Shown here piece by piece: positions 21,873 through 63,710 of a stretch of 64,000 nucleotides of DNA. Numbering within the stretch: the first letter of the stretch is position 1; every line of letters starts with the position of its first letter. The DNA lies in contig NZ_CP078145.1 of the NCBI RefSeq assembly GCF_019222765.1, forward strand, positions 4,898,001 to 4,962,000. The letters run 5' to 3'. The translations under genes and the position numbers were made by a program. This stretch comes from Nocardia iowensis (GTDB lineage Bacteria; Actinomycetota; Actinomycetes; Mycobacteriales; Mycobacteriaceae). The notes under the pieces are model-generated. The model was not told the origin of the DNA. It did no database searches and saw nothing but the letters and a program-made list of their open reading frames with translations.

Positions 21873-23126
21873 ATGACCCGGCAGACGACTCGACCGGCAG
21901 CACCGGCCGCCGATGTACTCGATGGTCACGGCAGGCTCTTGAGCAAGGCGATGGCGCGCATGCTCGGCTCGATCGGCGCCCCGGTCGAGCAGTCGAGCAG
22001 CGGTTGTCATGTCGTCGACCAGGCGGGCGTCGAATACCTGTCGTGCGGTGGCTACGGAGTGTTCTTGCTCGGTCACTGCCACCCGCGAGTGGTCGACGCG
22101 GTGGTCGGGCAGGTGCGTACCCGGCCGCTCGGTTCCCGCCTGCTGGTGGACCCGGACATCGTGCGGGCCGCCGAGGCGCTGATCGGTATCGCGCCGCCGG
22201 GGCTGGCGCACGTGACGTTCACGAACTCCGGTGCCGAAGCCGTCGAGATCGGCCTCAAACTGGCCAGGGCGACGGGACGTCATCGAATCATCGCCATGGA
22301 AAACGGGTTTCACGGCAAGACCATGGGTGCGCTGTCGGTCACCGGAAATGAGCGCTACCGCAAGCCCTTCGGTGCGTTGCTGCCCGGCGTCGAGCACGTC
22401 CGGTTCGACGATATCGCGGCCCTCGACAGCGCATTGGCGACCGGCGGGCCCGCCACGGTCATCGTCGAGCCGGTCCAAGCCGAAGGCGGCGTCCGGATCC
22501 CGCGGGCCGGGTATCTAGCCGCAGTGCGGGAGCGTTGCGACGCGCACGGCGCCCTGCTCATCGTGGACGAGATCCAGACCGGACTCGGCAGGCTCGGCCG
22601 CGAATGGGGCTGCTCGTTCGAGGACGTGGCGCCGGATATCCTGTTGTCCGGCAAGATTCTCGGCGGCGGCGTCTACCCCGTCGGCGCTGCGCTGGCGACG
22701 TCGCGGGTGCATCGGCCGTTCGACCGGGTCCCGTTCCTGCACACGTCCACCTTCGGTGGCAATCCGGCCGCCGCCGCGGCTATCCGCGCCGCGTTGGCGG
22801 TGATCGCGGACGAACATCTGGTCACCCGCAGCGCTGAACTCGGGGCGCTGCTGCTGCCGCAGGTCCGCGAGCTCGTCTTCGCGGGCTGCCCGCAGTTGGT
22901 CCGCGAGGTGCGCGGGCGCGGACTGCTGATCGGCATCGAATTCGTCGGCGCGGGCGCGGCGCTGAACATGATGCGGGAAATGTTGCGCCGCAGGGTGATC
23001 ACCTCCTACTCCCTGAACGCCGACCAGGTGCTGCGACTGACGCCGCCCGCGTTGTTGAGCGCGTCCGACGTGGATTGGCTGCTGTCGGCCTTACAGGCGG
23101 CCGCCCTGGAAATCGGTAGAGCGTAA
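21873..23126 (+). CDS. Class III PLP aminotransferase
   Basis: 417 aa, related to acetylornithine, putrescine and lysine 6-aminotransferases. Seen: FTNSGAEAVEIGLKLAR, the IVDEIQTGLGRLG block with Asp for the PLP ring nitrogen, and SGKILGGGVYPVGA with the Schiff-base Lys. The amino donor cannot be told. It shares one base with the acyl-CoA dehydrogenase-like gene after it (TAATG), so the two are translated together. In a natural-product setting such a pair can make an amino- or cyclic-amine starter unit; this is inference. Divergent from the SGNH/exporter operon. Confidence 0.88.
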   Translation: MTRQTTRPAAPAADVLDGHGRLLSKAMARMLGSIGAPVEQSSSGCHVVDQAGVEYLSCGGYGVFLLGHCHPRVVDAVVGQVRTRPLGSRLLVDPDIVRAAEALIGIAPPGLAHVTFTNSGAEAVEIGLKLARATGRHRIIAMENGFHGKTMGALSVTGNERYRKPFGALLPGVEHVRFDDIAALDSALATGGPATVIVEPVQAEGGVRIPRAGYLAAVRERCDAHGALLIVDEIQTGLGRLGREWGCSFEDVAPDILLSGKILGGGVYPVGAALATSRVHRPFDRVPFLHTSTFGGNPAAAAAIRAALAVIADEHLVTRSAELGALLLPQVRELVFAGCPQLVREVRGRGLLIGIEFVGAGAALNMMREMLRRRVITSYSLNADQVLRLTPPALLSASDVDWLLSALQAAALEIGRA

Positions 23127-24253
23127 TGGAATTCCTGCGAGTCGAGCGCGCGTGCCTGGCCGCCTTCCTACCCGAGCTGGCCGACGGCCTCGACGCGATG
23201 CTCCTCGCCGAATGCGAGCGAGCACGCGGCCCCGCGATCGAGCTGTTCCGCAGCAGCGGCGGCCCGGGGCTGCTGGTCCCGAAGCGGTATCACGGGCGCG
23301 GCGCGAGCGCCGTCGACGCCGTCCGCATCCAGCGCGCGGTGGCGGCGCGTGCCCCGTCGCTGGCGATCGCCAGCACCATGCACCATTTCTCGGTCGCCAC
23401 CGTGACCGCCCTTGCCGAGAGCAACCAGGGCGCCGAATGGCTGCTGCTGCGCTCGATCGCCGACAAATCGATGCTGGTGGCGTCCGGCTTCGCCGAAGGC
23501 CGACCCGGCCAGCACATCCTGAAGCCCGCGCTGCATGCGCGGCGCGTACCAGGTGGCTTCCTGGTGACGGGATCGAAGAAGCCGTGCAGCCTCACCTGGT
23601 CGATGGATGTGCTGACGGCGAGCGCCCAGATACCGGCAGACCTCGGTACCTCTGGCGAACCGGCATTGGTCGTTTTGCAGATTTCCGCCGACAGTCCGGG
23701 GATCACCCGAAAACCGTTCTGGGCCAACCCCGTACTCGCCGGGGCGGAAAGCGACGAAATAGTCCTCACCGACGTGTTCGTGCCCGAGCAGTTGGCGGTG
23801 GTCGCCGAACAGGCAGGCGACCGAATGGATCCGGTGCACACCCGTGGGTTCGTCTGGTTCGAGCTGCTGATCTGCGCGTCCTACCTTGGTATAGCCAGTG
23901 GCTTGGCCGAACGGGTGATCCGCGAGCAGCGCGGCACCGCGAGCGAACGATGCCAGGTCGCGGCACCATTGGAGACCGCGATGGCCGCACTCGAAGGCGT
24001 CGCGGGCGAGGTCGATGGTGGCAGCGCCGATCTCGGCAAAGTGCTGCTGATCCGCTACGGGGTGCAGCGGGCGATCGAGGGCGCGAGCATGCACGCCGCC
24101 GCTCTGGCGGGCGGGCTGAGCTTCATCACCGGTGCCGACGTGGGGTACCTGCTGGCCGCTTCGCGGGCGCTGGCCTATCATCCGCCCTCGTTCGGGTCGG
24201 CGGCCGAGGCGCTGGACGGCTATCTGCGCGGTGAGTCGATCACGCTGGCCTGA
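23126..24253 (+). CDS. Acyl-CoA dehydrogenase-like protein
   Basis: 375-aa protein with the three-part acyl-CoA dehydrogenase fold: an N-terminal helical part up to about residue 110 (with LLVPKRYHGRGASAVD), the beta domain with GGFLVTGSKKPCSLTWSMD, and the C-terminal helices (LGKVLLIRYGVQRAIEG). The usual catalytic Glu cannot be placed with certainty. Family members desaturate acyl-CoA or acyl-carrier protein substrates with FAD, and variants act as hydroxylases. It overlaps the aminotransferase at its start and the convergent AMP ligase by 34 bp at its end. A substrate on the carrier protein at 29029 is a possibility, not shown. Confidence 0.83.
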   Translation: MEFLRVERACLAAFLPELADGLDAMLLAECERARGPAIELFRSSGGPGLLVPKRYHGRGASAVDAVRIQRAVAARAPSLAIASTMHHFSVATVTALAESNQGAEWLLLRSIADKSMLVASGFAEGRPGQHILKPALHARRVPGGFLVTGSKKPCSLTWSMDVLTASAQIPADLGTSGEPALVVLQISADSPGITRKPFWANPVLAGAESDEIVLTDVFVPEQLAVVAEQAGDRMDPVHTRGFVWFELLICASYLGIASGLAERVIREQRGTASERCQVAAPLETAMAALEGVAGEVDGGSADLGKVLLIRYGVQRAIEGASMHAAALAGGLSFITGADVGYLLAASRALAYHPPSFGSAAEALDGYLRGESITLA

Positions 24254-25863
24254 CGCGAATCCGCTTTACCGGCAAGGTCGCGGCGAAGTGCGACCTTGTC
24301 CACCTTGCCGAGGTGGGTGAGCGGCAATTCCGCTACCGTCGCCAGCTGATCCGGCCACTTGTACTCCGCGACGCCGCGCCCGTCCAGGAAGTCCCTTAGC
24401 TCACCGAGGGTGAGTGCCGCGCCAGAAACGACTACAGCGCAGGTCTTCTCACCCATCAGCCGGTCCGGCACCGCGACGACGGACACCCGGCGTACCGCGG
24501 GATGAGCCAGGATGTGGGCTTCGACCTCCTCGGCGGATACCTTCTCGCCCCCGCGATTGACAATGTCCTTGACCCGGCCCTCCACCACCAGGCAGCCGTC
24601 GGCGGTGCGCCGCGCGAGGTCACCGGTGCGCAGGAATCCGTCCGCGGTGAAGGCGCTCGCATTGGCGGCCTCGGCCCGGTAGTAGCCACGAATCGTGGTG
24701 GGCCCCCGGAACAACAGGTGGCCAACGGTTTCCGGCCGCACCTCGTGGTCAGCGTCGTCGACGATTCGCCACTCGTCGGCCTCGGACAGCGGCCTGCCCT
24801 GGGTGGTGTACCGGCGCTCCGGATCGTCGCCGGGCCGGGTGAAAACCAGTGGCCCCTCCCCCATCCCGAACCATTGGGTCAGCGTGCAGCCGAGCTCCGG
24901 CTCGACCCGTCTGGCGATCTGTTCCGGCAGCCGTGCCCCGCCGACTTCGAGCACGAGCCCGGACAGATCCGCGTCGAATTCCATTGCCAGATCGAGCCAC
25001 AACGTCACGAAGGAGGGCATCAGGGTGGTGAGCGTCGGATGTTCGGCGGCAATCAACGGGAACGCCTCGTCCGGGCTCGGGGTCGCGGCCAGCACCGCCG
25101 TGGCGCCGGCGCGCAGCGCGCCGAGGACGCCGGGACAGCCGAGTCCGGCGTTGTGCGCCACCGGAACTACCGCGAGATACACGCCCGCCGCGTCGAATCC
25201 CATCTGCTCGGCGGTCGCGCGCAGCTGAAACGCGTAGTCATCGTGGGTTCGCGGGATCAGTTTCGCGGTTCCGGTGGTGCCGCCGGAGAGCAGTAGCAGC
25301 GCCACCGACGACGGGTCCGGCGCGGGCAGCGCCCGTGCTGAGGTCGACTCGAGGTCGGTCAACGCGACGAATTCGTCCGGCTCTCCGACCACGATCACCC
25401 TACGCACGGTGGGTGCCGCCGCAACGACATCGCGCGCCAGCGCGCGATAGTCCATGCCTCGATATCGGTCGGCGACAACGTAACCCGTCGCGTCGGTGTG
25501 CAGGCACAGCTGAGTGATCTCGGTCTGGCGATGCGCGGGCAAGGCCAGCACGGGGATGACGCCGACGCGGAACAGCGCGACGCAGACCACCACGAACTCG
25601 ACGATGTTCGGCAGTTGGACGACCACCCGGTCACCCGGCTGAAAACCGCGTTCGAGCAGCCCCCAGGCAATGCGGTCCGCCCAGTGATCGAGCTCGGCGT
25701 AGCTCCATCGGCGTCGTCCGGCGACGACCGCGATCTTGCCTGCCTGCCGGTCGTCGGCGGTCCGGAGCAGGTCGCCGAGCCGCTCGCCACGCCAGTAGCC
25801 GTCGCGTCGGTATCGCGCCGCATCGGCCGGTGGCGTGCCGGGAAAGTCGCCGCGGCCGTTCAT
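24220..25863 (-). CDS. Salicylate-type aryl-AMP ligase (EntE/YbtE-like)
   Basis: 547-aa stand-alone adenylation enzyme that should activate an aryl acid and load it on the ArCP of NRPS 1. N-terminal YRRDGYWRGERLGDLL is typical of DHB/salicylate-AMP ligases; LLSGGTTGTAKLIPRTH is the P-loop; GRVKDIVNRGGEKVSAEE is motif A8; the Lys of HLGKVDK ends it. By eye alignment to DhbE, HNAGLGCPG gives Asn235 and Cys240 and FGMGEGPLVF gives Leu337; Cys240 and Leu337 are the salicylate signature, while Ala at 236 (usually Tyr/Phe) is odd and could widen the pocket. Overlaps the FMN-oxygenase gene before it by ATGA. Confidence 0.88.
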   Translation of the reverse strand: MNGRGDFPGTPPADAARYRRDGYWRGERLGDLLRTADDRQAGKIAVVAGRRRWSYAELDHWADRIAWGLLERGFQPGDRVVVQLPNIVEFVVVCVALFRVGVIPVLALPAHRQTEITQLCLHTDATGYVVADRYRGMDYRALARDVVAAAPTVRRVIVVGEPDEFVALTDLESTSARALPAPDPSSVALLLLSGGTTGTAKLIPRTHDDYAFQLRATAEQMGFDAAGVYLAVVPVAHNAGLGCPGVLGALRAGATAVLAATPSPDEAFPLIAAEHPTLTTLMPSFVTLWLDLAMEFDADLSGLVLEVGGARLPEQIARRVEPELGCTLTQWFGMGEGPLVFTRPGDDPERRYTTQGRPLSEADEWRIVDDADHEVRPETVGHLLFRGPTTIRGYYRAEAANASAFTADGFLRTGDLARRTADGCLVVEGRVKDIVNRGGEKVSAEEVEAHILAHPAVRRVSVVAVPDRLMGEKTCAVVVSGAALTLGELRDFLDGRGVAEYKWPDQLATVAELPLTHLGKVDKVALRRDLAGKADSRQASVIDSPRR

Positions 25864-27011
25864 CGTGCCGAAATAGTCAGCGGGACAGCGGCATCGGCCC
25901 GGTCCGGCGGGTCGAGCAGGCCCGCGCGCCGGAGCAACGGCAGCACACCCTCACCGAACGTGTACGCCTCCTCCAGATGTGGCTGGCCGGACAGGATCAG
26001 ATGATCGGCGCCGAGTGCGTGTAATTCGGTAATGCGGTCGGCGACCTCCTCGTGGCTGCCGACCAGCGCGACACCGGCACCCGGCCGGACCAGACTGTAG
26101 CCTGCCCACATGTTCGGGTAGATCTCCAGCGAAGCGGCCGATTGGCCAGATGCGCCGTTGTGCAGCAACGCCATTCGGCGCTGCCCCTCGGATTGTGAGC
26201 GTTCGAAGCGGCGCTGCGCCTCGCGCACCCGGACCGGATCCATGCCGCGCAGGATGCGATCGGCCTCCGCCCACGCCAGTTCGGCGGTGTCCCGGCTGAT
26301 CACATGGAAGCGGGTGCCGAGCTGGATGGATCTGCCTTCCCGCGCGGCACATTCGCGTGCCTGATCGAACATTCGCGATATCTGCGGCGGCGTCTCACCC
26401 CAGGCGAGGTAAACGTCGGCATGTCGCGCCGCGGTCGTCCGCGCCGCGTCGGAGGAACCGCCCAAGAACACCGGCGGCGCGCTGGGCCAGGGACGGGTCA
26501 GCGTTGCCGCGGCAACGCGGTAGTGCTTCCCCTCGAAATGGAACGGGGGATGTTCGCGCGCGCCGCGCATGACGGTGAGGAATTCGCCTGCCCGCTCGTA
26601 GCGTTCGTCGTGACCGAGCCAATCGCCGTACCGGTGCTGCTCGTCTTCGTCGCCGCCCATCACCACATTGAGCAGCAGGCGCCCACCCGACAACCGCTGA
26701 CAGGTGGTGGCCATCTGCGCGGCCGTCAGCGGCGACAGCAGGCCGGGCCGGAAGGCGACCATGAACTGGAGCCGGGTCGTCTGCCCGCTCAGCGCCGCGG
26801 CGACCAGCCACGGGTCTTCGCAGAACAGCCCGGACGGCACCAGCGCTCCGGTGAAGCCGAGCCGGTCGGCGGCCATGGCGACCTGGGCGAGATAGTCGAT
26901 GTCCGGCTCGCGGCGGACGTCGGCGGCGGTCGTGGTTCCACCACCGGCCGGGCGCGCGATATTGCGGCCGTCGCCGTGCGAGGGAATGAACCAGTGGAGT
27001 CGCAGCGTCAT
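25860..27011 (-). CDS. LLM-class (SsuD-like) FMN-dependent monooxygenase
   Basis: 383-aa TIM-barrel flavin oxygenase using reduced FMN from a partner reductase. Starts LRLHWFIPSHGDGR, typical of the alkanesulfonate monooxygenase SsuD branch; also seen are RLSGGRLLLNVVMGGDE and PPVFLGGSSDAARTTAARHADVYLAWGE (in parts), and a C-terminal phosphate-binding area VALVGSHEEVADRI. ATG at 27011 is favoured by GGGAG upstream. Coupled by ATGA to the salicylate-type ligase. Within a natural-product locus such enzymes do oxidations or ring changes; in sulfur metabolism they release sulfite from sulfonates. The adjacent ligase favours the former, but a link to cysteine sulfur supply is possible. Confidence 0.85.
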   Translation of the reverse strand: MTLRLHWFIPSHGDGRNIARPAGGGTTTAADVRREPDIDYLAQVAMAADRLGFTGALVPSGLFCEDPWLVAAALSGQTTRLQFMVAFRPGLLSPLTAAQMATTCQRLSGGRLLLNVVMGGDEDEQHRYGDWLGHDERYERAGEFLTVMRGAREHPPFHFEGKHYRVAAATLTRPWPSAPPVFLGGSSDAARTTAARHADVYLAWGETPPQISRMFDQARECAAREGRSIQLGTRFHVISRDTAELAWAEADRILRGMDPVRVREAQRRFERSQSEGQRRMALLHNGASGQSAASLEIYPNMWAGYSLVRPGAGVALVGSHEEVADRITELHALGADHLILSGQPHLEEAYTFGEGVLPLLRRAGLLDPPDRADAAVPLTISAR

Positions 27012-27316
27012 TATTTCTCCCATATCGAGACGCCGGTCGGGCTCTTCCGCGGGAATCGCGTCTCGCCGGCGGGACACGCGGCCGGGCGGCCGGCGGGCTC
27101 GGCGCGATGAGATGAATTGCACGCTAGTCCGCAGGTGTCCCGGTGTCATCGACGTGCACCGCGATCGGGGCAGCGAAACATACGGCCTGCGAATCGAATC
27201 GGACGGCGGTGTCGCCCGACGATGGCGCGCATACAATTCAGGGCATCATCGTTCGGACGGGGCCGGGGCCCGGACGTTCTCCAGTCTTTCGATCAAGGCG
27301 ATTATTCGCGCAGGCG
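27012..27316. other. Divergent promoter region, no gene seen
   Basis: About 305 bp between the FMN oxygenase (minus) and the acyl-AMP ligase (plus). A TACAAT at 27232-27237 reads as a -10 box for the ligase; no good -35 box is placed before it. The ligase frame is open through part of this stretch, but the translated sequence shows no family similarity. Confidence 0.5.
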
Positions 27317-29032
27317 GTGGAATTGTTGGCAGCAGCTCGATCGGTACTCGACTGGCTCGAAAACCCGGCCGAAGACAACGGGATCCGGTTTTCCGGTCCG
27401 GACGGCACCTGGGATTTCTGGAGTTATTCGCGCCTTGCCGCGCTGACTCGACAATTCGCGGCCGGGCTGACCCAGCGCGGCATCGGTAACGGCCAGCGGG
27501 TCACCCTTATTCAGAGTTCCGGCCCGCATTTCGTCGCCTCGTTCTTCGGTGCGATGCTGGCGGGGGCCGTGCCGTCACCGGCGGCGCCGCCGCTGGTCTT
27601 CGGCGATATCGCCGCCTACGCCGACCATGTCAACGGCCTCGTACACACGGCGCGTTCGGCTCTCGTGGTGGCCGATGCCCAACTGGTCGACACCATCCGA
27701 GAAATCCTGGCCGATGCGGCCGCCGCGCCACCGGTCGCCGATTTCGGCGACGTGCCCGCGACCGAACCAGCCGACCGGACCGGCCGAACGTCAGCGCGCG
27801 ATTTGGCGCTGCTCCAATTCACCTCCGGCTCCACCGGACGTTCTCGCGGTGTCGAGGTGTCGCACGGGGCGCTGGCGAGCAATGTCGCCGCGATCCATCG
27901 GTGGCTGCGCTGGACACCGGCCGATGCCACGGCATCGTGGCTGCCCGTCCATCACGACATGGGCCTGATCGGGTGCCTGGTCGCGCCGGTGGTCATGGGC
28001 GGCGATCTGTGGTTGCTCGCACCCGGTGACTTTCTCCGCGAGCCAGCGCGATATCTGCGATGCTTCGGCGAGTTCGGCGCACGGCTGACCGCGATGCCGA
28101 ATTTCGGACTCGAATACGTGACCCGCCGGGTATCCCCGGATGCCTTGACGGACTGCGACTTCACGGCTTGGCGGGCCGTCATCATCGGCGCCGAGCACAT
28201 CGATCCGGATTCGTTGCGGCGATTCCACGCGGCGCTGGCTCCGTTCGGGCTCTCCCGCCAGGCGCTATTGCCCGCGTACGGGCTCGCGGAATCGACGCTG
28301 GCCGTCACCGGAGTACCGCTGGACGAAGACTGGACCTGCGCCATAGTCGATCCCGATGCGCTCGCGGTCGGATCCCCACTGCGTCAGGTGCCGGACGGGC
28401 AGCCGATAGTCGGATGCGGCCGACCACTCGCGGGACTGACCGTCAGCATCGTCGACAGTGATCGGGCAGAACTCTCGAACGGACCAGCCGAATTACCCGA
28501 AGGCACCGTCGGCGAGATCGTGGTGCGCGGGTCCTCGGTCGCCGACGGCTACGCCGACAGTCGTGACACCAGGACGACCACCCTCAGCGCTGGCGAGTTG
28601 CGTTCCGGCGACGCCGGTTTCGTCCTCGACGGGCAGCTGTTCGTGCTCGGCAGGCTCGGCGACAGCATCAAGATCCGGGGCACCACGGTCTTCGCCGAAG
28701 ATCTGGAGGCCGCGATGGCGGGCCTGGGCCTGCGCGCACACCGGTGCGCGGTGTTGCTGGGTATGCATCGGCAGCAGCCCACCGTCGTCGCGATGCTCGA
28801 ACAGGAATTGAGCGAATCCGCGATCGACACTCTGGTCGCGTTGCTGCGGCGGCGCACCGAGACCGCCAGGATCGTGCTCGTCACCGCCGCGCGCGGCGCC
28901 ATCGCGCGGACATCGAGCGGCAAAGTGCGCCGCCGTCAGTTGTGGAACGCGTTCGTCACCGGGCAGCTGCCGGGGACCGTGCTGTACGACACCCAGGAAC
29001 CGAAGCTGGCTACAGGAGGCCGACGCTCGTGA
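27317..29032 (+). CDS. Fatty acyl-AMP ligase (FAAL-like)
   Basis: About 571 aa from the GTG at 27317 (start uncertain; TTG codons at 27323/27326 or an earlier GTG are alternatives). FAAL proteins adenylate fatty acids and hand them to a carrier protein, not to CoA. Seen: LLQFTSGSTGRSRGVE (P-loop), WLPVHHDMGLIGCL (typical of FAALs, with HHDMGLIG), LPAYGLAESTL, and the C-terminal GRLGDSIKIRGTTVFAEDLE and SSGKVRRRQLW. The next gene, overlapping by GTGA, is a carrier protein, which supports direct loading. Chain length unknown. Confidence 0.87.
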   Translation: MELLAAARSVLDWLENPAEDNGIRFSGPDGTWDFWSYSRLAALTRQFAAGLTQRGIGNGQRVTLIQSSGPHFVASFFGAMLAGAVPSPAAPPLVFGDIAAYADHVNGLVHTARSALVVADAQLVDTIREILADAAAAPPVADFGDVPATEPADRTGRTSARDLALLQFTSGSTGRSRGVEVSHGALASNVAAIHRWLRWTPADATASWLPVHHDMGLIGCLVAPVVMGGDLWLLAPGDFLREPARYLRCFGEFGARLTAMPNFGLEYVTRRVSPDALTDCDFTAWRAVIIGAEHIDPDSLRRFHAALAPFGLSRQALLPAYGLAESTLAVTGVPLDEDWTCAIVDPDALAVGSPLRQVPDGQPIVGCGRPLAGLTVSIVDSDRAELSNGPAELPEGTVGEIVVRGSSVADGYADSRDTRTTTLSAGELRSGDAGFVLDGQLFVLGRLGDSIKIRGTTVFAEDLEAAMAGLGLRAHRCAVLLGMHRQQPTVVAMLEQELSESAIDTLVALLRRRTETARIVLVTAARGAIARTSSGKVRRRQLWNAFVTGQLPGTVLYDTQEPKLATGGRRS

Positions 29033-29349
29033 ACGACTCACTGCCCGAAGACAACGGACGCATGCGTTCAGAGGACGAGATCCGCTCGCTCATCAGGATT
29101 CTCATCCTCGAACTGGCGCCCGCACCCGACCGTGCCGACGCGAACGGCGACGCCCGCCTGGTCGACGACCTGGCATTCCATTCGCTGGCGCTGATCGAGA
29201 TGGCCTTCACCCTCGAGGACGAGTTCGATCTGGAACCGATCGACGAGGCGAGGGCTCGCCAGATCGCGACGATGCGCGATGTCGGGGACTACGTGGTCGC
29301 CGAACTGGCACAGCGCGGCGACCTGGCCGATGCGACGCAGGTCGGCTGA
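29029..29349 (+). CDS. Acyl carrier protein
   Basis: 106 aa. Phosphopantetheine site is the Ser in LVDDLAFHSLALIEMAF (usual D-S-L replaced by H-S-L), followed by EDEFDLEPIDE, the acidic helix II-III of carrier proteins. GTG start; AGGAGG (29014-29019) is nine bases upstream, and the first four bases overlap the ligase end. The likely acyl donor is the FAAL before it; likely acceptors are the free condensation domain gene that follows on the other strand or a tailoring dehydrogenase. Confidence 0.87.
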   Translation: MNDSLPEDNGRMRSEDEIRSLIRILILELAPAPDRADANGDARLVDDLAFHSLALIEMAFTLEDEFDLEPIDEARARQIATMRDVGDYVVAELAQRGDLADATQVG

Positions 29350-30723: not shown

Positions 30724-30814
30724 CGAAACCCCTTTGATGACACGAGGAAAACAGCAATTGCCGCTGCGGTCGACAATATTGCTTTACGAACAACAGCGCA
30801 CCGATACTGACCAG

Positions 30815-57336: not shown

Positions 57337-58360
57337 TCGTCGCACCTCCCTGCTCCGTCGGTGTCACTCGCAGCCACTTCCAGCCATCGGCCCGGCTGCC
57401 GCATGCCACGGTGACGGCGTGGTCGTGTTCGAGCACCGATGCGGCCGCCGCCGCTGTGCGCAGCACACCGCACGCACCGAAGGTCGCGTCGAAGTCGTCC
57501 GGTGGTGGTTGCGTGGGTGGCGGTCCTGCGTGCATCGTTCCGATCACCGGCGCAGGCCAGGTGACGCGATCGGCGCGCTCGAGGACCACGCATCCGGCCG
57601 CCGACCGCAGCAGGACCTGGTCCGGTGCGACCGCATGGCGATACAACGCCGCGGCGATCTCGTCATCCGGCTCGGCGCCGACGACGATCACCCGCTCGGC
57701 GCGGCCCGCGTTGATCAGAAACCGACCGGTCGCCACGGCATCGAGACCGGAGGTCGCGCCGGAGCACACCATCACATTCGGCCCGCCGCAGCGAAACCAG
57801 ATCGCCACCGCACTCGCCAGCACATTGCTCGACGCGTTCGGCGCGTCGAGCACGCTGACCCCGCGCAGATCGCCTGCCGCCACGGTGCGCGCGAGACGCG
57901 CCACGGTGGCGACATTGCCGAGGTTCGAGCTGGCCACCACCGCGGTGCGCGGTTGCGGCGGGCCCAGGTTCCGCGACGCTCCGGCAGGGAGACCCAGCGC
58001 CCGATGCACCGCACACAACGCGAGCCGGGTCGCCGGTTCCTTGTGCAACAAGCCTTTTCGGCCCAAGATTTCGTGCACCCGCTCCGGCGGAAGGTCGGAT
58101 TTGTCCTGGTCGCCGGACAACCCGGACGGCAAGTGCAGAGCCCACCCCGTGATAGCGGTATCCGCAAGTCCCCCAGTCTCCTCCGCTGTTCGCTTGCTGC
58201 GCTCGACCGTGCGGACCGTTCGCTCGCCGCGGTCAGCCACACCCGCTGTTCGCTCGCCGGGCCCAGCCATGCCGCCCCTTCGGCCACCGGAATCAGCCAG
58301 GCCGACTCCTCCCTTGCCAGGCTCAGCCATCCCCGCTGTTCGGGCGCCGCGCTCGTTCAT
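57329..58360 (-). CDS. Degenerate ketosynthase-like protein with N-terminal repeats
   Basis: 343 aa. Residues 1-61 are six imperfect 10-residue repeats (of the kind GPGERTAGVA, DRGERTVRTV). The rest resembles the N-terminal half of a ketosynthase: VMVCSGATSGLDAVATG keeps the Cys position, but the HGTGT His motif is absent and the GHT motif is replaced by TFGACG. Matches the KS-like/CLF-type proteins of aryl-polyene loci (PF13723 type), which modulate chain length. ATG at 58360 is supported by GGAGG and by ATGA overlap with the KS gene. Confidence 0.8.
   Translation of the reverse strand: MNERGARTAGMAEPGKGGVGLADSGGRRGGMAGPGERTAGVADRGERTVRTVERSKRTAEETGGLADTAITGWALHLPSGLSGDQDKSDLPPERVHEILGRKGLLHKEPATRLALCAVHRALGLPAGASRNLGPPQPRTAVVASSNLGNVATVARLARTVAAGDLRGVSVLDAPNASSNVLASAVAIWFRCGGPNVMVCSGATSGLDAVATGRFLINAGRAERVIVVGAEPDDEIAAALYRHAVAPDQVLLRSAAGCVVLERADRVTWPAPVIGTMHAGPPPTQPPPDDFDATFGACGVLRTAAAAASVLEHDHAVTVACGSRADGWKWLRVTPTEQGGATSE
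58180..58360 (-). repeat. Six 30-bp degenerate repeats in KS-like gene 5' end
   Basis: A unit of about 30 bp (GTTCGCTCGCC-like core on the plus strand) occurs six times and codes for ten-residue repeats. The frame is kept. Copies differ by several bases each. Confidence 0.7.
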
Positions 58361-59481
58361 GCGACAGCCTCCAGCAACGTGACGGCGTTGACTCCCCCGA
58401 AACCGAACGAGTTCACTTGGGCCGTCCGGACGGACGCCGTAACCGGCCGTCCCGCGACCAGGCGTAGGTGGGCAGCCTCCGGTAGCGCTTGCCGCAGTCC
58501 GACGACGGGTGGCACCATCCCCGCCGCCATGCATCGGATGGCGATCTCGGTACTGAGCAGTGCCGAACCGCCGGAGGTATGCCCTACCGCGCCTTTCAGC
58601 GCGGTCACCAATGGTGTTGCCGCGCCGAACACCTCGGACAATGCGGTGGCTTCGGCGGGATCGTTGAGCGCGGTGCCGGTGCCGTGCGCGACAACGAGAT
58701 CCACGCATGACGGGTCCCGCGCACCCCGCTCGAAAGCTTCCCGCATCGCCCGGCAGATGCCGTCGTGATCCAGCGCGGTCTCGCGGGCCGCGTCGCAGGA
58801 CAACCCGGTGGCCAGCAAGCGAGCCCTGGCCAGCGCGCCGACCAGGCTCTCGCGGACGACCACCAAGACCACCGCGCCCTCGCCGAGCAACACTCCGGTC
58901 CGGTCGGTGTCGAAGGGCCGCACCGCCGTCGTCGGTGTCTCGCTGACCTTGCCGATCATCGCCAGCATCGATGCCGTCATCGAATCGGTGCCGCCGACCA
59001 CCACCGCGTCCGCCTCCCCCGCGTCGAGCAGATCTTGCGCGAGCGCCAGCGCGTATCCGCCCGCGCTGCACGCGTTGGAGATTGTCAGCACGTCCGCAAT
59101 GCCCGGTGCCGCCCGACGCACCACGGTACCGAAATGCAATGCGTCGGCGGCGAACTCGGCGTCCGAGTCCAGCGCCATCCGCTCCACCGCACGCAATTCC
59201 CGCAATCCGGTGGCGATGATCGCCCGCACTCGATGCCGCCGGGGATCGACCGCCGAACGGGCCAAAGCCTCAGCGACACATTCACCGAGCCAGCGACTCG
59301 CCCGGAAGGTCTCTTCCTCGGTTCTGGGCTCGGCATGAAATCCGCACCGCACGTTGACTTTTCCAGAATCTACATACCGTAGCCGTGCGATCCCGCTGCG
59401 GCCGTCGAGCAGCGCCAGGAAGGTCGCGTCACCATCGCCGAAGCAGGTTCGACACGCACTAGCCTCGATGACCACGGACAT
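58357..59481 (-). CDS. Type II ketosynthase, canonical (KS-2)
   Basis: 374 aa. Full active site: NACSAGGYAL with Cys, DLVVAHGTGTALND with His, and GAVGHTSGGSALLS with the second His, plus NSFGFGGVNA at the end. This is a working FabF-type enzyme by sequence. The start ATG at 59481 has AGGGGG seven bases upstream; GTG at 59487 is an alternative. Shorter than FabF (410). Overlaps the CLF-like gene before it by 23 bp. Confidence 0.88.
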   Translation of the reverse strand: MSVVIEASACRTCFGDGDATFLALLDGRSGIARLRYVDSGKVNVRCGFHAEPRTEEETFRASRWLGECVAEALARSAVDPRRHRVRAIIATGLRELRAVERMALDSDAEFAADALHFGTVVRRAAPGIADVLTISNACSAGGYALALAQDLLDAGEADAVVVGGTDSMTASMLAMIGKVSETPTTAVRPFDTDRTGVLLGEGAVVLVVVRESLVGALARARLLATGLSCDAARETALDHDGICRAMREAFERGARDPSCVDLVVAHGTGTALNDPAEATALSEVFGAATPLVTALKGAVGHTSGGSALLSTEIAIRCMAAGMVPPVVGLRQALPEAAHLRLVAGRPVTASVRTAQVNSFGFGGVNAVTLLEAVA

Positions 59482-60523
59482 CCGCACACCCCCTGACCAC
59501 CGCGGCCGCGAGCGCGCCGTCCTCGGACCAGCCGACCATCAGCGCCGCCGCAGCGCCGACCACCAGCGAGGCGGCCAGTTGCACCACACCCGCCGCCGCC
59601 CGGCAGTCGCCGAAAGTGACCTCGAGATCGAGTTGCCGCGCTCTAGGCGCGCGCAGCGCCATGGCCGCGCGGATGTGCGCGGCCATGGGGCCGTCCGTCC
59701 CGGAGATCAGCGAATGCGACAGCGCATCCCACGTCGTCGCGGCTTGGTCCAGCGCCGCATCCGCGCAAGCCAGCACCGCGTCCACGGTGGGGCCGCCGGG
59801 ACTGAATCGGCAGACCACCGGCGACAACTCGGTGTGCACCTGCCGTCCGGTGCGTCGCGCCTCGTCGGCCCGCTCGAGCACGAACACACCGGCCGCCTCA
59901 CCCGGAGTGATACCGATATGCCGACCGGCCCACGCCGAATGCGGCGTGAACTCCTCGACCGCACCGACCAGCAACGCGTCGGCGCGCAGCCGGTCCAGTG
60001 TGTTCTGGGCGTAGCGCAGGACGTTCAGAAATGCCACCGGCCCGCCCGCCAGGGTCGTGTTCACCCCCTTGAGCTGGAAGCGGATCGCCGCTTGCCCGGC
60101 AGCGGTATTCATCACCGTGTTGGGGAACAGCGCGGGATTGACGAGATACGGGCGGGCCTGGATCAAGGTGTCCTTGCTGAAGGTCATCGTCGAGCTGAGA
60201 CTGCCCGCGGTCGTGCCGAAGACCACGCCGACACGGCGGCGGTTCTTGTCATCAACGCGAAGCCCGGAATCTTCCAGCGCCTGCGCGGTCGCGACCAAAG
60301 CCAGTCCGGTGCCACGGTCGTAAAATGTTGTGCCCTTGCGGCCGAGATGGCTTTTGATGTCGAAATCGGTGACGACATGCGCCTGCGCCTCCGGCAGCAC
60401 CTCGTCGTACATGGTGTCGATCGGGTGCCGGGTGCCGCGGCGGCCGTGGAGTGCGTCGGCGAAGACCTGAGGGCCGACGCCTGCCGCGCTCAGAATTCCC
60501 CAGCCCGTCACCCCGGTGGTCAT
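59459..60523 (-). CDS. Chain-length-factor-like ketosynthase without Cys (CLF)
   Basis: 354 aa. Ketosynthase fold, but the active-site region reads NTTLAGGPVAF, Ala in place of Cys; the His motif regions are also altered. Pairing with a preceding canonical KS is how chain-length factors of type II polyketide synthases work. ATG at 60523 after GAGG; overlaps KS-1 by ATGA, supporting a KS-CLF pair. Confidence 0.86.
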   Translation of the reverse strand: MTTGVTGWGILSAAGVGPQVFADALHGRRGTRHPIDTMYDEVLPEAQAHVVTDFDIKSHLGRKGTTFYDRGTGLALVATAQALEDSGLRVDDKNRRRVGVVFGTTAGSLSSTMTFSKDTLIQARPYLVNPALFPNTVMNTAAGQAAIRFQLKGVNTTLAGGPVAFLNVLRYAQNTLDRLRADALLVGAVEEFTPHSAWAGRHIGITPGEAAGVFVLERADEARRTGRQVHTELSPVVCRFSPGGPTVDAVLACADAALDQAATTWDALSHSLISGTDGPMAAHIRAAMALRAPRARQLDLEVTFGDCRAAAGVVQLAASLVVGAAAALMVGWSEDGALAAAVVRGCADVRGHRG

Positions 60524-61737
60524 GCCCGCACCTCGTCCATGGCACCGAAGATGGTGATCGCGTTGTTGCCGCCGAAGGCGAACCCGTTGTTCTGGACCGT
60601 GCGCACGCGCGCGGTCCGCGCAACATTGGCAACCGGGTCCAGCCACGGCATGTCGGGATCCTGGTTGCGCCAATTGACGGTCGGCGGAAGGAACCCGTCG
60701 GCGATGGCCAGCGTCGACGCGATCGCGCCGAACCCACTCGCCGCCCCCATCGTGTGACCGAGCATCGACTTGATGGAGCTCACCGGCGGCGGCCGGTCGC
60801 CGAACACGTCACGGATCGCCCTCGCCTCGACGAGATCGTTGGCCCGCGTACCGGTTCCGTGCGCGCAGATGTAGTCGATGTCGCCTGGTGCGACGCCCGC
60901 ACTGCGGTGCGCCTGCCGGACACACTCGGCGATGTCGTCCTGGTTCGGTGCCACCATATGGTGGGCGTCGCAGTTGAGGCCGTAGCCGAGCATCTCGGCA
61001 TAGATCCGCGCGCCGCGAGCCCGCGCGTGCTCGAATGTCTCCAGCACGAGGGCGGCGCCGCCCTCGCCGGTGAGGATGCCCGAACGGTCCCGATCGAACG
61101 GTGAACAGGCGCGCTCCGCGAGCGCACCCATCCGGTAGAAGCCGGCGTGCGCCCACCGGCACACCGAATCCGCGCCGCCGGCAACCATCACGTCCGCGCT
61201 GCCGGAGCACAGGTGCTCGTAGGCGTACGCCAGCGCGTAATTGCTCGCCGAACACGCGGTCGTGATCGTGATCGACGGTCCGGACGCATCCAGTTCCTCA
61301 CTCACCGCATGTGCGAGGCGTGCGGCGGGCACGAGCTCGACCAGCTTCGGATCCAGTGCCTCGAACCCGCCCGCCACCTGCTGGGCCGTAAGTGCCTCCA
61401 CGACTTGCGATTCCCCGCTCGTCGTGCCCACTACCGCACCGATGCGGTCGCGCGCTACGTCGCCCATGCCCAGCCCGGCATCGTCGACGGCCAAGCGCGC
61501 CGCCGCCGCGGCAAACAGGCTGGTGCGCCCCCAACTCGCCGGGTCGACCCGGCGGACCATGGCCTGTGGCGCGAACCCGTGGACCTCTCCGCCGTGCACG
61601 TAGGGGAAGCCGGTCGAATCGAAGCCGGCGATCTCGGAGGTGCCGATCCGCCCGGCCCGCAATCCTCGGCCGAAGTCGGCGACACCGATGCCGATACTCG
61701 ACACCGGGCCGAGGCCGGTGACGACAACCCGGTCCAC
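60520..61737 (-). CDS. Type II ketosynthase, canonical (KS-1)
   Basis: 405 aa from GTG at 61737. All FabF-type motifs: TTACSASNYALAYAYEH (Cys), YICAHGTGTRAND (His) and SMLGHTMGAASGF (His), with NNGFAFGGNNA near the end. Likely forms a heterodimer with the following CLF-like protein to extend acyl chains on the ACP by decarboxylative condensation with malonyl-ACP. Starts 2 bp after the ACP stop. No malonyl transferase gene is in the operon, so a fatty-acid one is presumably shared. Confidence 0.92.
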   Translation of the reverse strand: MDRVVVTGLGPVSSIGIGVADFGRGLRAGRIGTSEIAGFDSTGFPYVHGGEVHGFAPQAMVRRVDPASWGRTSLFAAAAARLAVDDAGLGMGDVARDRIGAVVGTTSGESQVVEALTAQQVAGGFEALDPKLVELVPAARLAHAVSEELDASGPSITITTACSASNYALAYAYEHLCSGSADVMVAGGADSVCRWAHAGFYRMGALAERACSPFDRDRSGILTGEGGAALVLETFEHARARGARIYAEMLGYGLNCDAHHMVAPNQDDIAECVRQAHRSAGVAPGDIDYICAHGTGTRANDLVEARAIRDVFGDRPPPVSSIKSMLGHTMGAASGFGAIASTLAIADGFLPPTVNWRNQDPDMPWLDPVANVARTARVRTVQNNGFAFGGNNAITIFGAMDEVRA

Positions 61738-61739
61738 TG

Positions 61740-61997
61740 TCAGCCCGCGTCCAGATAACGTTGCACCAGGTCCTCGACCGCCTTCATATTGCGCATTTCC
61801 GGCAATTCGTACTGCGGCACGTCGATGCCGAATCGCTTCTCGATGCGCGCCAGGATCTCGATTGCCCGCAACGAATCCGCGTCGTACTCCGACACGAAAT
61901 CCGCTGTGTCCGATAGCTCTTCGGGTTCGATTTCGAGCACTTCGGCGACGATTTCGCGCAATTGCGCCTTCAGTTCTTTGCTCGGCACCATGGTCAT
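61740..61997 (-). CDS. Acyl carrier protein of the type II polyketide synthase
   Basis: 85 aa. Ser in SEYDADSLRAIEILARIEKRF (D-S-L motif) is the phosphopantetheine site; KELKAQLREIVAEVLEIEPEEL is helix I. Acidic and of normal length. Overlaps the dehydratase gene start region by ATGA and is placed between the dehydratases and KS-1, the normal order in reducing type II loci. It carries the growing chain. Confidence 0.93.
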   Translation of the reverse strand: MTMVPSKELKAQLREIVAEVLEIEPEELSDTADFVSEYDADSLRAIEILARIEKRFGIDVPQYELPEMRNMKAVEDLVQRYLDAG

Positions 61998-62515
61998 TCT
62001 GCCTCTCGCTCCGTGACATTTTCTCGGTTCTTGATATGCGGGCGTACTGCCGACGACGGCCGGACCGTGGCGGCGAAGGTGCCGACCTCGGCCACCAGCC
62101 GGTCCCCTATCGAGGTCGTCCCCGACGCGAACGCGGTGTCACCGATCTGCGCGTCGAGGCAAATTCGATGGCACAGCAGATCGCCCGGGTAGGCGGCGGA
62201 ATGTATTCGGCAATTCCGTGCCGCCCCGAACAACAGCACGCCATCCGCTGCGGACTCGCGCCCCGCTATCCACAGCAGTGCCGCCGCCTGGCCGAACGAC
62301 TCGAGCAGCAGCGATACCGGATATGCCCACGCGTCCGAATCCGCCGTTTCAGCGATGCCCTGATAACACGGCTCGCAGGCGGTCACCGCCTTGATCGCGT
62401 GCACGGATTCGCCGGGCACGAGATCGAGCACCTGATCCAGCAATAGCATCGGATAACGCTGCGGTAGCAAGCGCCGGATCTGTCCGTGGTCGCGCATGAT
62501 CAGTTCCCGTGTCAT
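61994..62515 (-). CDS. Hotdog dehydratase-like subunit lacking the catalytic His (DH-2)
   Basis: 173 aa, FabZ-like: IRRLLPQRYPMLLLDQVLDL aligns with the FabZ start and YPVSLLLESFGQAAALLW holds the Glu position. But the GHFPGxP stretch with the catalytic His is replaced by EPCYQGIAETADSDAW. It likely needs the partner DH-1 and forms a heterodimer, as known for dehydratase pairs of reducing type II polyketide synthases. ATG at 62515 shares one base with DH-1's stop. Confidence 0.83.
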   Translation of the reverse strand: MTRELIMRDHGQIRRLLPQRYPMLLLDQVLDLVPGESVHAIKAVTACEPCYQGIAETADSDAWAYPVSLLLESFGQAAALLWIAGRESAADGVLLFGAARNCRIHSAAYPGDLLCHRICLDAQIGDTAFASGTTSIGDRLVAEVGTFAATVRPSSAVRPHIKNRENVTEREAE

Positions 62516-62973
62516 CAGCTGCCCGCGAATTCCGCGGTGATCGCGGCGATCCGGAGGCCGTCGTCTCGACAACACCGGGACCGGACGACGAAGATGCCGG
62601 GTTCGGCGCTCGCTCGCACGCTGACGTCCAGGTGCATCGTGTCCCCCGGGAAGATCGGCGCCAGGAAGCGCATCGACCGCACCGCCGACAGCCGGACCGA
62701 ACGCCCGGCGAGCACTTGGCGGATCGCCTGGTCGAGGCATTCCAGGATGAAAACCCCTGGTAGCACGGGAAAGCCGGGAAAATGCCCGACAAGATAGGGT
62801 TCGTCGTCCATAACGTGCTTGACCGCGCGAAAGACCAGCTCGTCCCGTCGGCCGTCGGCGACCCACGCATCGAGATCGGGCGGCACCCGCAGCTCATCGA
62901 CCGCGGCGAGCGGGGCGGCCCGCATGCCACGCACGGGCGCCAGCGGACGATAGCGGTCGAGGCTGCCGGTCAC
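62515..62973 (-). CDS. Hotdog 3-hydroxyacyl-ACP dehydratase (DH-1)
   Basis: 152 aa. [19 protein letters not shown] contains the catalytic His and the PGV-Glu pattern of FabA/FabZ enzymes; [17 protein letters not shown] follows as usual. GTG start overlaps the FabG stop (GTGA). It should remove water from 3-hydroxyacyl-ACP to give trans-2-enoyl groups; repeated with no enoyl reductase in the locus, this would build a conjugated polyene (inference). Confidence 0.87.
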
Positions 62974-63710
62974 AATGTCAGGCCTCCGTCGACGGCGAAC
63001 GTCTGGCCGGTGATGTAGGAAGCCGCATCGGAAATGAGGAAAGCCACCAGCGGAGCGACATCACCGGGTTCGCCGAGGCGGCCCAGCGGAATCGAATCGA
63101 GCGCGTCCTTTCGCTTTGCCGCGGGGAGCCCTTTGGTCATGTCCGTCTCGATGAAGCCGGGCGCGACCACATTGACGCGGACACCGTACGGCGCCACCTC
63201 CTTGGCCAGCGATTTACTCATCCCGATGATGCCCGCCTTCGACGCCGAATAGTTGCTTTGCGTCGCGCTTCCGTAGATACCGGCAACCGACGAAATATTG
63301 ACGACAACCCCGCGTCTACGCTTCATGAATCTGTACAGCACCGATCGACAGAAATTCCAGGTGCCGGTGAGATTGGTGTCGATGACGGCATCCCAGTCGT
63401 CCCGGGGCATCAATACGATCGGATTGTCCCGGACGATCCCGGCATTGTTTATCAACGCGCCCACCGGGCCCACCGATCGGTACGCAGCGGTCACAAACCT
63501 GTCGACCGCATCCGAGTCACGGACATCGCATGCCCCGAGATAAAACGGCACACCAATGGCCGCGAGCTCGGCTTTGATCTTCATCGAGTCTTCGCTTTCG
63601 GCCGAATAGCATCCCGCGATCGCGTAATTGCGGGCAGCGAGATGCAGTGCGAGCGTCCGTCCGATTCCCCGGGAAGCGCCGGTGACGAGTGCACAGAAAT
63701 GATCAGCCAA
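62970..63710 (-). CDS. 3-oxoacyl-ACP reductase, FabG-like SDR
   Basis: 246 aa. [15 protein letters not shown] cofactor loop, NNAGIVRDN (typical of FabG), [21 protein letters not shown] with Tyr/Lys catalytic residues, [12 protein letters not shown] and the ending [15 protein letters not shown]. Start TTG at 63710 with GGAGGG six bases upstream; no better start is near. First gene of the polyketide operon that runs on the minus strand to 51356. An attaTCTA-type -10 box (TAGAAT at 63761-63756 on the minus strand) may lie upstream. Confidence 0.9.

What the first reader, a model, noticed from the sequence alone, without database searches (positions are those of the whole stretch)
21873..63710. 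Large hybrid locus joining a pyochelin-type NRPS with a reducing type II polyketide set
Seen: ArCP-Cy-A-T and Cy-A(MT)-T-TE-like NRPS genes with a thiazolinyl imide reductase, a FAAL with carrier protein, a free C-like domain, a carbamoyltransferase, several P450s and methyltransferases, and then a complete KS/CLF/ACP/dehydratase/FabG set with two ketosynthase pairs and no enoyl reductase. Known: the first group makes aryl-thiazoline/thiazolidine peptides; the second makes polyenes. Inference: one product carrying both parts, carbamoylated and methylated, or two adjacent clusters. I know no described cluster with this combination.
Basis: partly seen in the sequence, partly recalled or inferred. 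Interest (0 to 1): 0.88.

Follow-up and report, generated by a model that had tools for sequence, protein, structure and literature searches.

The report
Hybrid peptide-polyketide gene cluster
A 43-kb bacterial gene cluster joins two machines known separately, one that makes sulfur-ring peptides like the iron carrier pyochelin and one that makes polyene or benzene-bearing acids; relatives in several actinomycete genera carry both together, and the second machine may make the ring acid from which the first one starts.

Summary
One set (24220-50869) is a PchE/PchF-like NRPS with thiazolinyl imide reductase, FAAL, carrier, free C domain and carbamoyltransferase. The other (51356-63710) is a highly reducing type II PKS of the cinnamoyl/polyene kind. 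Genes at 21873-24253 and the giant NRPS at 72-117 kb are not part of it. Distances of the two blocks agree (r = 0.99).

My best reading: the PKS makes the NRPS line's aryl starter acid. Ten of ten hybrid loci lack a salicylate or isochorismate synthase, against 8 of 16 PKS-less loci that have one. In all ten the aryl-AMP ligase carries Ala where all 16 PKS-less readings have Phe/Tyr. Hybrid operons, unlike four PKS-only loci, add a CoA synthetase, NovR-like protein, CoA-transferase and FadA5-like thiolase. This contrast may be a single evolutionary event; the chemistry is inferred. The window copy is divergent (one module fewer, altered C-domain motif). The product is unknown.

The parts
24220..25863 (-). 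DhbE-like aryl-AMP ligase (would load the aryl starter); Ala at the position of DhbE Tyr236, Cys at 240
   Evidence: orthologue in 9 of 9 relatives
25860..27122 (-). luciferase-like FMN monooxygenase (SsuD-like)
   Evidence: 9 of 9 relatives
27317..29032 (+). fatty-acyl-AMP ligase (FAAL)
   Evidence: 9 of 9 relatives
29029..29349 (+). free acyl carrier protein next to the FAAL
   Evidence: under cut-offs; 9 of 9 relatives
29449..30723 (-). free-standing condensation domain; motif HN..D here, HH..D in 5 of 5 aligned relatives
   Evidence: found in 6 of 9 relatives, the other three contigs end before its expected place
30716..32038 (+). cytochrome P450
   Evidence: a similar P450 in 9 of 9 relatives, 46-60%
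32042..33184 (-). HsaA/HpaB-like flavin hydroxylase (acyl-CoA dehydrogenase fold)
   Evidence: 7 of 9 relatives
33243..34370 (-). thiazolinyl imide reductase
   Evidence: over TIGR01761 cut-off; 9 of 9 relatives
34367..39352 (-). NRPS2: docking-Cy-A(Cys-like, embedded MT)-T-TE-like; TE nucleophile Ser replaced by Gly
   Evidence: 8 of 9 relatives, G155 contig starts after it
39349..42789 (-). NRPS1: ArCP-Cy-A(PchE-like)-T; one module fewer than four relatives checked
   Evidence: 6 of 9 relatives, the other three contigs end before it
43204..44283 (+). cytochrome P450 (start may be upstream)
   Evidence: only a partial match in one relative
44467..45453 (+). O-methyltransferase
   Evidence: similar genes in 8 of 9 relatives
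45450..46673 (+). cytochrome P450
   Evidence: no counterpart assigned in the relatives
46673..47683 (+). O-methyltransferase
   Evidence: similar genes in 9 of 9 relatives
48135..49847 (+). carbamoyltransferase (NodU-type)
   Evidence: 6 of 9 relatives
49844..50869 (+). O-methyltransferase
   Evidence: no full counterpart assigned in the relatives
50918..51355 (+). glyoxalase/bleomycin-resistance-family protein
   Evidence: weak counterparts (31-46%) in 6 of 9 relatives
51356..52603 (-). cytochrome P450 of the PKS operon
   Evidence: 8 of 9 relatives; not in four PKS-only loci
52600..54177 (-). acyl-CoA synthetase (FadD4/PRK12406-like, under cut-offs)
   Evidence: 8 of 9 relatives; only 22-26% AMP-ligase matches in two of four PKS-only loci
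54174..54902 (-). nitroreductase-family protein, only in the window copy
54913..55665 (-). class II aldolase-fold protein, NovR-like (PDB 9ryg, 224 bits)
   Evidence: 8 of 9 relatives (65-71%); not in four PKS-only loci
55682..56407 (-). DsbA-family protein, perhaps the polyene cis-trans isomerase
   Evidence: 8 of 9 relatives and in PKS-only loci
56407..57336 (-). 4HBT hot-dog thioesterase
   Evidence: 8 of 9 relatives and in PKS-only loci
57329..58360 (-). second chain-length-factor-like protein without the KS catalytic motifs
   Evidence: 8 of 9 relatives
58357..59481 (-). second ketosynthase (active-site Cys and HGTGT present)
   Evidence: 8 of 9 relatives at 56-61%
59459..60523 (-). chain length factor
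   Evidence: 9 of 9 relatives
60520..61737 (-). ketosynthase of the highly reducing type II kind (best PDB 6kxd, 390 bits)
   Evidence: 9 of 9 relatives at 67-70%
61740..61997 (-). acyl carrier protein of the PKS
   Evidence: 9 of 9 relatives
61994..62515 (-). FabZ-like dehydratase
   Evidence: under cut-off; 9 of 9 relatives
62515..62973 (-). FabA/FabZ-like dehydratase partner
   Evidence: 9 of 9 relatives
62970..63710 (-). FabG-like ketoreductase
   Evidence: 9 of 9 relatives
63835..64000 (-). 3' end of class III CoA-transferase gene (63835-65055); operon goes on with thiolase 65066-66235 and AurF-like 66232-67242 outside the window
   Evidence: CoA-transferase and thiolase in 9 of 9 relatives, AurF-like in 6 of 9

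Best explanation
One co-inherited cluster, about 24220-67242. The highly reducing type II PKS (KS/CLF pair, second KS/CLF-like pair, ACP, KR, two DH, isomerase, thioesterase) builds a polyunsaturated acid that is isomerised and ring-closed. The operon's acyl-CoA synthetase, P450, NovR-like protein, CoA-transferase and FadA5-like thiolase trim it to a substituted benzoic-type acid. The DhbE-like ligase loads that acid, in place of salicylate, on the ArCP of a pyochelin-type line. The two Cy-A-T modules add two cysteines as rings, the imide reductase makes one a thiazolidine, and the embedded MT methylates it. Tailoring enzymes hydroxylate, O-methylate and carbamoylate. FAAL, its carrier and the free C domain either prime the chain or add a further acyl group. 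Shown: gene content, conservation, co-inheritance, absence of a salicylate or isochorismate synthase in the loci, the pocket change. Inferred: every chemical step.
For: Both blocks lie on one contig in 9 of 9 relatives, and conservation is sharp at 24220 and 67242. Gene order is shuffled between relatives while much of the content is kept. Distance matrices of the two blocks agree (r 0.992, 0 of 9999 permutations; 7 taxa: r 0.979, 2 of 5040). Hybrid copies form one group in both trees (93/89 for the reductase, 99/99 for KS). The ligase residue at DhbE 236 is Ala in 10 of 10 hybrid loci and Phe/Tyr in 16 of 16 readings from 15 PKS-less loci, and Phe in two further ones, L066 and L006. No chorismate-enzyme profile match in 10 of 10 hybrid loci; of 16 PKS-less loci with the ligase, 6 have a salicylate synthase and 2 more an isochorismate synthase-like gene (Fisher p 0.053 for 6, 0.009 for 8). 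NovR-like gene, CoA-transferase, thiolase and P450 51356 are in the hybrid operon but not found in PKS-only loci G268, G483, G029 and G044. The thiolase is over the PRK07850 steroid 3-ketoacyl-CoA thiolase cut-off (594.6 vs 515). NovR is the second-best PDB relative of 54913. The cassette matches the KS/CLF, KR, DH, isomerase sets described for cinnamoyl lipids (PMC9381841, PMC9321520; passages).
Against: The hybrid ligases come from one group of clusters, so Ala236 and the missing synthase may reflect one event and not many; the Fisher values ignore this. Eight of 16 PKS-less loci also lack a salicylate or isochorismate synthase in the stretch read, and the salicylate-synthase contrast alone is only p 0.053. 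The own genome has a salicylate synthase elsewhere (7.77 Mb) that could supply the line, and Streptomyces MspMP-M5 has pieces of one on another contig; G150 and G152 have isochorismate synthases on other contigs. Seven of the 16 PKS-less readings share Cys240, so only position 236 sets the hybrids apart. NovR-like assignment rests on family similarity; a 'fuculose-1-phosphate aldolase' entry scores slightly higher. No ring-closing enzyme was identified. The window copy lacks genes that 8 or 9 of 9 relatives have (type II thioesterase, saccharopine-dehydrogenase-like protein, hydrolase, a methyltransferase), has one NRPS module fewer and an altered C-domain motif, so it may be partly decayed.
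Confidence: 0.47

Rival explanations
1. One cluster and one product, but the PKS acid is a separate acyl group: FAAL loads it on the free carrier and the free C domain joins it to a pyochelin-type core whose aryl acid comes from elsewhere.
For: FAAL and carrier are in 9 of 9 relatives; the free C domain is in 6 of 9 and keeps HH..D in the 5 aligned ones; CCNP clusters use a similar PKS cassette to make an acyl chain on a peptide (PMC9321520, passages); the own genome has a salicylate synthase elsewhere.
Against: Does not explain the Ala236 pocket, the missing synthases in 10 of 10 hybrid loci or the trimming genes found in hybrid operons and not in four PKS-only loci. In the window the C domain has HN.
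Confidence: 0.3
2. One co-inherited cluster that makes two separate products (for instance a thiazoline metallophore and a polyene acid) under common selection.
For: Both halves exist alone elsewhere: PKS cassette in G268, G483, G029, G044, G246, and the reductase (E up to 1e-70) in 15 of 393 other class genomes in which the second KS was not found at the same threshold.
Against: Shuffled gene order; the AurF-like and FMN monooxygenase genes sit in either half depending on the relative; hybrid-specific features in both halves.
Confidence: 0.12
3. Two unrelated clusters that lie side by side by chance.
For: Convergent operons meet at 51355/51356.
Against: Nine relatives keep both blocks together; congruent trees and distances.
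Confidence: 0.02
4. Not exclusive of the others: in this genome the cluster is a decaying copy that no longer gives the family's product.
For: Missing thioesterase II and other core genes, one module fewer, HN motif in the C domain, long branch in the reductase tree.
Against: The listed genes are open frames with one codon usage across the window (model trained on the window itself); the nucleophile-less TE is shared by six relatives; extra genes are present.
Confidence: 0.15

Closest known systems
Pyochelin assembly line (PchD, PchE, PchF, PchG; layout recalled)
   Same: Aryl-AMP ligase, ArCP-Cy-A-T, Cy-A(MT)-T-TE layout, imide reductase; A domain nearest PchE.
   Different: No salicylate synthase in the locus, changed ligase pocket, TE without nucleophile, a whole type II PKS operon and CoA-trimming genes.
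Micacocidin cluster (PKS-derived alkylsalicylate starter)
   Same: A polyketide acid primes a thiazoline/thiazolidine line; a FAAL is involved. PMC12971057 calls the unit 'PKS-derived 5-alkylsalicylate' and PMC11837247 lists a C6:0 FAAL fused to the PKS (passages).
   Different: Micacocidin uses an iterative type I PKS (recalled); here the PKS is a highly reducing type II set with separate further enzymes. No sequence comparison was made.
Highly reducing type II PKS of cinnamoyl lipids and polyenes (youssoufene, globisporamic acid, epoxinnamide, ishigamide)
   Same: Two KS, two CLF-like, ACP, KR, two DH, putative isomerase; KS nearest to 6kxd, which I recall as the ishigamide KS/CLF.
   Different: There the acid is free or an acyl chain on a peptide (passages); here it sits with a short Cy NRPS and added CoA/NovR-like genes.
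Cispentacin KS-CYF set (AmcF-AmcG; PMC10698177, abstract, passages and sections 9 and 10 read)
   Same: 58357 and 57329 give weak matches to the AmcF and AmcG models.
   Different: Both far under the curated cut-offs (163.9 vs 325; 25.9 vs 80); presence of an AmcH-like ligase was not tested.
Transvalencin A / uniformides (Nocardia thiazolidine zinc complexes)
   Same: Several five-membered hetero-rings attached to a benzene ring, from what is probably the same genus (PMC11364655, passages).
   Different: No type II PKS is mentioned in the passages seen; not compared by sequence.
Micromonospora lupini Lupac 08 cluster 6 'NRPS+PKS' (MiLup_43546-43581)
   Same: Almost certainly the same locus as G156: same strain, and its thiazolinyl imide reductase MiLup_43551 falls in the range (PMC4182475, passages).
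   Different: Listed in 2014 without a product in the passages seen.

Membership tests
Pyochelin-type NRPS | Tandem Cy modules with an ArCP start and cysteine-type A domains | tested here: met
   (DxxxxDxxS motifs, PchE-like A domain); specificity judged from similarity and motifs only
Pyochelin-type NRPS | Thiazolinyl imide reductase | tested here: met
   TIGR01761 over cut-off
Pyochelin-type NRPS | Salicylate supply in the locus and salicylate-type ligase pocket | tested here: not met
   no chorismate enzyme in the locus; Ala at 236 in 10 of 10 hybrids, although Cys240 is of salicylate type. 8 of 16 PKS-less loci also lack such a gene in the stretch read, so this feature is not strict
Pyochelin-type NRPS | Active terminal thioesterase | tested here: not met
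   nucleophile Ser replaced by Gly in 7 of 7 aligned copies
Highly reducing type II PKS | KS and CLF pair of the ishigamide/cinnamoyl clade | tested here: met
   KS 390 bits and CLF-like 57329 best to chains of 6kxd; no tree with named HR KSs was built
Highly reducing type II PKS | KR, DH pair, ACP, isomerase in the operon | tested here: met
   the isomerase role of the DsbA-family gene is by analogy to GlaV/YsfG, not by sequence comparison
Highly reducing type II PKS | Polyene or benzene-bearing product | not testable with these tools
   needs product isolation
Cispentacin KS-CYF subfamily | AmcF and AmcG family membership | tested here: not met
   163.9 vs 325 and 25.9 vs 80 bits; AmcG not among hits at 1e-5 for the longer ORF
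NovR/CloR oxidative decarboxylases | Close similarity to NovR | tested here: inconclusive
   224 bits to 9ryg, but 232 bits to 4xxf named fuculose-1-phosphate aldolase
Metallophore cluster | Metal-responsive control or uptake genes | tested here: inconclusive
   no IdeR-box-like site with up to 3 mismatches in the window, but none in L014/L015 either, so no positive control; uptake genes not searched for

The most novel reading that the evidence does not exclude
A new way to start a siderophore-type line: a highly reducing type II PKS, coupled to CoA-dependent side-chain trimming, makes a non-chorismate aryl acid that has replaced salicylate in a pyochelin-type pathway, with a matching change in the ligase pocket, and this pathway has spread as a unit among actinomycetes.
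Probability: 0.4. Interest if true: 0.8.

Novelty: new variant of a known kind. Interest (0 to 1): 0.7.

Why it matters
If right, it links two biosynthetic worlds that are catalogued apart and shows that the aryl cap of thiazoline metallophores can be swapped for a type II polyketide acid. PMC12971057 notes that its chelator-based genome-mining rule could not include PKS-derived chelators (passages), so such clusters would be missed or split in two. Ten members were found here and no product turned up in the ten paper searches; the family makes a clear test possible: what does the Ala236 ligase activate?

Tried and rejected
Giant NRPS next door (72365-117438) as partner of the PKS, as in cinnamoyl peptides: my first idea. 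Rejected, because none of the nine relative loci has it and conservation stops at 67242.

KS-CYF (cispentacin) reading of the second KS pair: dropped as a membership claim, scores far under cut-off.

A second salicylate source in the genomes: PF00425 searched in 7 genomes. In G153, G154 and G156 the typed genes are TrpE, TrpE-like or PabB-like; one 617-637 aa protein per genome matched nothing at 1e-60 and stays untyped. In G150 and G152 one gene of 5 and one of 4 were typed, both isochorismate synthases on other contigs. In G157 a salicylate-synthase piece lies on another contig, and one gene (L256) was not typed.

A first count gave 9 of 16 PKS-less loci with a salicylate synthase. On re-checking three of the nine are not: two are nearest an isochorismate synthase, one nearest TrpE. 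The profile was built from these same hits, so positives are partly by construction.

Iron-box scan: no matches, but none in the second siderophore-like cluster either, so it says nothing.

Class-wide co-occurrence as statistics: 4 KS genomes (54% identity or more) and 16 reductase genomes besides the own one, overlap 1 of 393, hypergeometric 0.15; not significant alone.

Ten paper searches gave no paper that describes this combination, judged from listings and the passages opened.

Rows dropped: the 21 PKS-less loci are 16 loci in the 15 reductase genomes without the PKS, the own second cluster, and 4 of the 30 own-genus reductase genomes. Five of the 21 have no DhbE-like ligase and were left out of the ligase/synthase table; the ligase of G297 is partial and was not read at 236. 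L063 (a 6.5-kb contig) was not searched for the PKS. PKS-only locus G246 (5.7 kb) was left out of the gene-content contrast; the contig of G268 begins 3.4 kb from its cassette.

Full report
What is there. The window is G000:C1:4898001-4962000 of an 8.95-Mb single-contig genome. Its genus is not told; size, G+C and 150 held species fit Nocardia (my inference). The NRPS half is PchE/PchF-like: ArCP-Cy-A-T (39349-42789) and docking-Cy-A(MT)-T-TE-like (34367-39352), with imide reductase over its curated cut-off and an A domain closest to PchE. The PKS half has KS (390 bits to 6kxd), CLF, ACP, two dehydratases, KR, a second KS with its Cys and HGTGT, a second CLF-like protein, a hot-dog thioesterase and a DsbA-family protein.

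One cluster, not two. A scan of named genomes with the reductase gave 20 loci. The eight that also hold a FAAL and O-methyltransferases (47-55% reductase identity) come from Sphaerimonospora, Planotetraspora, five records named Micromonospora and one Streptomyces. Nineteen of the 20 genomes were searched for the second KS. Seven matched at 58-62% on the same contig as the reductase. The contig of an eighth (G151) begins inside the PKS operon but holds CLF, KS, ACP, DHs, KR, CoA-transferase and thiolase. Eleven, none of them among the eight, had no such gene (best 5.7e-29 in G158; nothing at 1e-35 in ten). A sample of 394 class genomes found one more full locus, G262, with reductase and KS 32 kb apart. 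Against these nine relatives the conserved block runs from 24220 to 67242. In the eight, tested for 10-122 kb, the only matches outside it are a 37% MFS hit in G157 and a 36% DUF899 hit in G156. In G262, tested for 19-80 kb, it is a 37% aldehyde-dehydrogenase hit. In 9 of 9 relatives: ligase 24220, FMN monooxygenase, FAAL, carrier, a P450 like 30716, reductase, CLF, KS, ACP, both DHs, KR, CoA-transferase, thiolase. In 8 of 9 (not G151, contig edge): P450 51356, acyl-CoA synthetase, NovR-like gene, isomerase, thioesterase, both genes of the second KS pair. NRPS2 is in 8 of 9. NRPS1, free C and the AurF-like gene are in 6 of 9, the other three contigs ending first. Carbamoyltransferase is in 6 of 9 (absent from G151, G157, G262).

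Co-inheritance. Hybrid copies form one group in the reductase tree (30 rows, 93/89, 92% of bootstrap trees) and in the KS tree (14 rows, 99/99, 98%). In both, G151 pairs with G262 and the four other Micromonospora stand together next to G150 and G152; the places of the window copy and G157 are open in the KS tree. Mean distances of four genes of each block correlate at 0.992 over ten loci (0 of 9999 permutations) and 0.979 over seven (2 of 5040); the FMN monooxygenase was counted with the NRPS block although it lies at the PKS end in several relatives. Shared species history adds to the agreement. In the own genus, 30 of 149 other genomes have a reductase, best 46%, and the best second-KS match in 147 others is 50%, so the cluster probably came into this lineage from another family (inference).

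What the PKS half does. A similar PKS cassette occurs without the NRPS in G268, G483, G029, G044 and, on a short contig, G246. In the four longer loci I found no P450 51356, NovR-like gene, CoA-transferase or thiolase, and only 22-26% AMP-ligase matches in two of them. Published cinnamoyl and polyene systems use two or three KS/CLF pairs, KR, DHs and a cis-trans isomerase, glutathione-dependent in YsfG, that prepares a polyene for ring closure (PMC9381841 and PMC9321520, passages). So the added genes look like a device that turns such an acid into something else: CoA activation, a thiolase of the steroid side-chain type (PRK07850, 594.6 bits against a cut-off of 515) and a NovR-like protein. 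NovR makes a benzoic acid by oxidative decarboxylation (recalled).

Why I think it is the starter. Pyochelin-type lines mostly start from salicylate (recalled). I compared ten hybrid loci (50-116 kb) with 21 loci that have a related NRPS and, except one, a related reductase but no PKS (19-60 kb); 16 of the 21 have a DhbE-like ligase. A chorismate-enzyme profile built from such loci matched 0 of 10 hybrid loci and 9 of the 16. Checked against typed references, 6 of the 9 are salicylate synthases (the own second cluster, the source of the query, among them), 2 are nearest an isochorismate synthase and 1 is nearest TrpE. Fisher p is 0.053 for 6 of 16 and 0.009 for 8 of 16. The ligase position equal to DhbE Tyr236 is Ala in 10 of 10 hybrids and Phe or Tyr in 16 of 16 readings from 15 PKS-less loci, while Cys240 of the hybrids is shared with seven of the 16; L066 and L006, outside the table, also have Phe. 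Position 236 lies in the aryl pocket (recalled from the DhbE structure). The missing synthase, a wider pocket and an extra acid-making operon fit one another. Against this: one ancestral event may explain all three; eight PKS-less loci also lack such a synthase nearby; the own genome has a salicylate synthase in its second Cy-type cluster, and two relatives have isochorismate synthases and one a salicylate-synthase piece elsewhere.

Oddities of the window copy. The TE-like domain has Gly for the catalytic Ser in all seven aligned copies, so release must use something else; nine of nine relatives have a type II thioesterase gene, and none was found from 12 kb left of the window to 80 kb right of it. 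The free C domain reads HN at the motif where five aligned relatives read HH. NRPS1 has one Cy-A-T module where four relatives checked have two; its Cy is nearest the first module's, and its A is nearest the second's in all four by 15-49 bits, as might follow an internal deletion. A saccharopine-dehydrogenase-like gene (9 of 9 relatives), a hydrolase (8 of 9) and a methyltransferase (8 of 9) are missing. The window copy may therefore make a smaller product, or be in decay.

Known or new. PMC12971057 describes a cluster where salicylate supply seems replaced by a naphthoate route and says PKS-derived chelators could not be included in its rule (passages). PMC4182475 lists a Micromonospora lupini 'NRPS+PKS' cluster 43546-43581 with the reductase 43551 (passages), which I take to be G156. 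No product was found in ten searches. I rate it a new variant of a known kind: a pyochelin-type line combined with a cinnamoyl-type PKS, with micacocidin as the nearest logic.

Noticed in passing
G000:C1:7750000-7795000 (L014-L016): A second Cy-type cluster in the same genome: NRPS up to 53% identical to the window's, two DhbE-like ligases with Phe236 and a salicylate synthase over its cut-off.
   Followed up: partly
window 72365-117438 (L010-L012): A separate large NRPS cluster right of the finding (2261, 6975 and 5118 aa); the 2261-aa protein ends in a reductase domain. Not found in the relative loci.
   Followed up: partly
G000:C1:8028182-8066935: An open frame of 14602 codons with many NRPS module matches.
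   Followed up: no
window 34367-39352, C terminus: TE-like domain with Gly for the catalytic Ser, kept in seven aligned copies from several genera: release mechanism unknown.
   Followed up: partly
window 29449-30723: Free C domain with HN instead of HH, while five aligned relatives keep HH.
   Followed up: yes
G029:C6:175347-184146, G044:C17:208215-217094: Same-genus loci with the PKS cassette and no Cy NRPS, beside genes I did not identify: another product family of the cassette.
   Followed up: partly
G154:C19:44594-45918 and 60792-63131 (also G150, G152, G153, G155, G156): Three-subunit molybdenum hydroxylase (xanthine dehydrogenase family) inside six of nine relative clusters; an aldehyde oxidase step would fit an aryl aldehyde intermediate.
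   Followed up: partly
window 69527-71173: Aldehyde dehydrogenase gene divergent from the last P450 beside the cluster; could stand in for the molybdenum enzyme, but it is not conserved with the cluster.
   Followed up: no
G000:C1:5162788-5180976 and 7795485-7797140: Three more NodU-type carbamoyltransferase genes in the genome.
   Followed up: no
window 50918-51355: Glyoxalase/bleomycin-resistance-family gene at the operon end, possibly self-protection.
   Followed up: no
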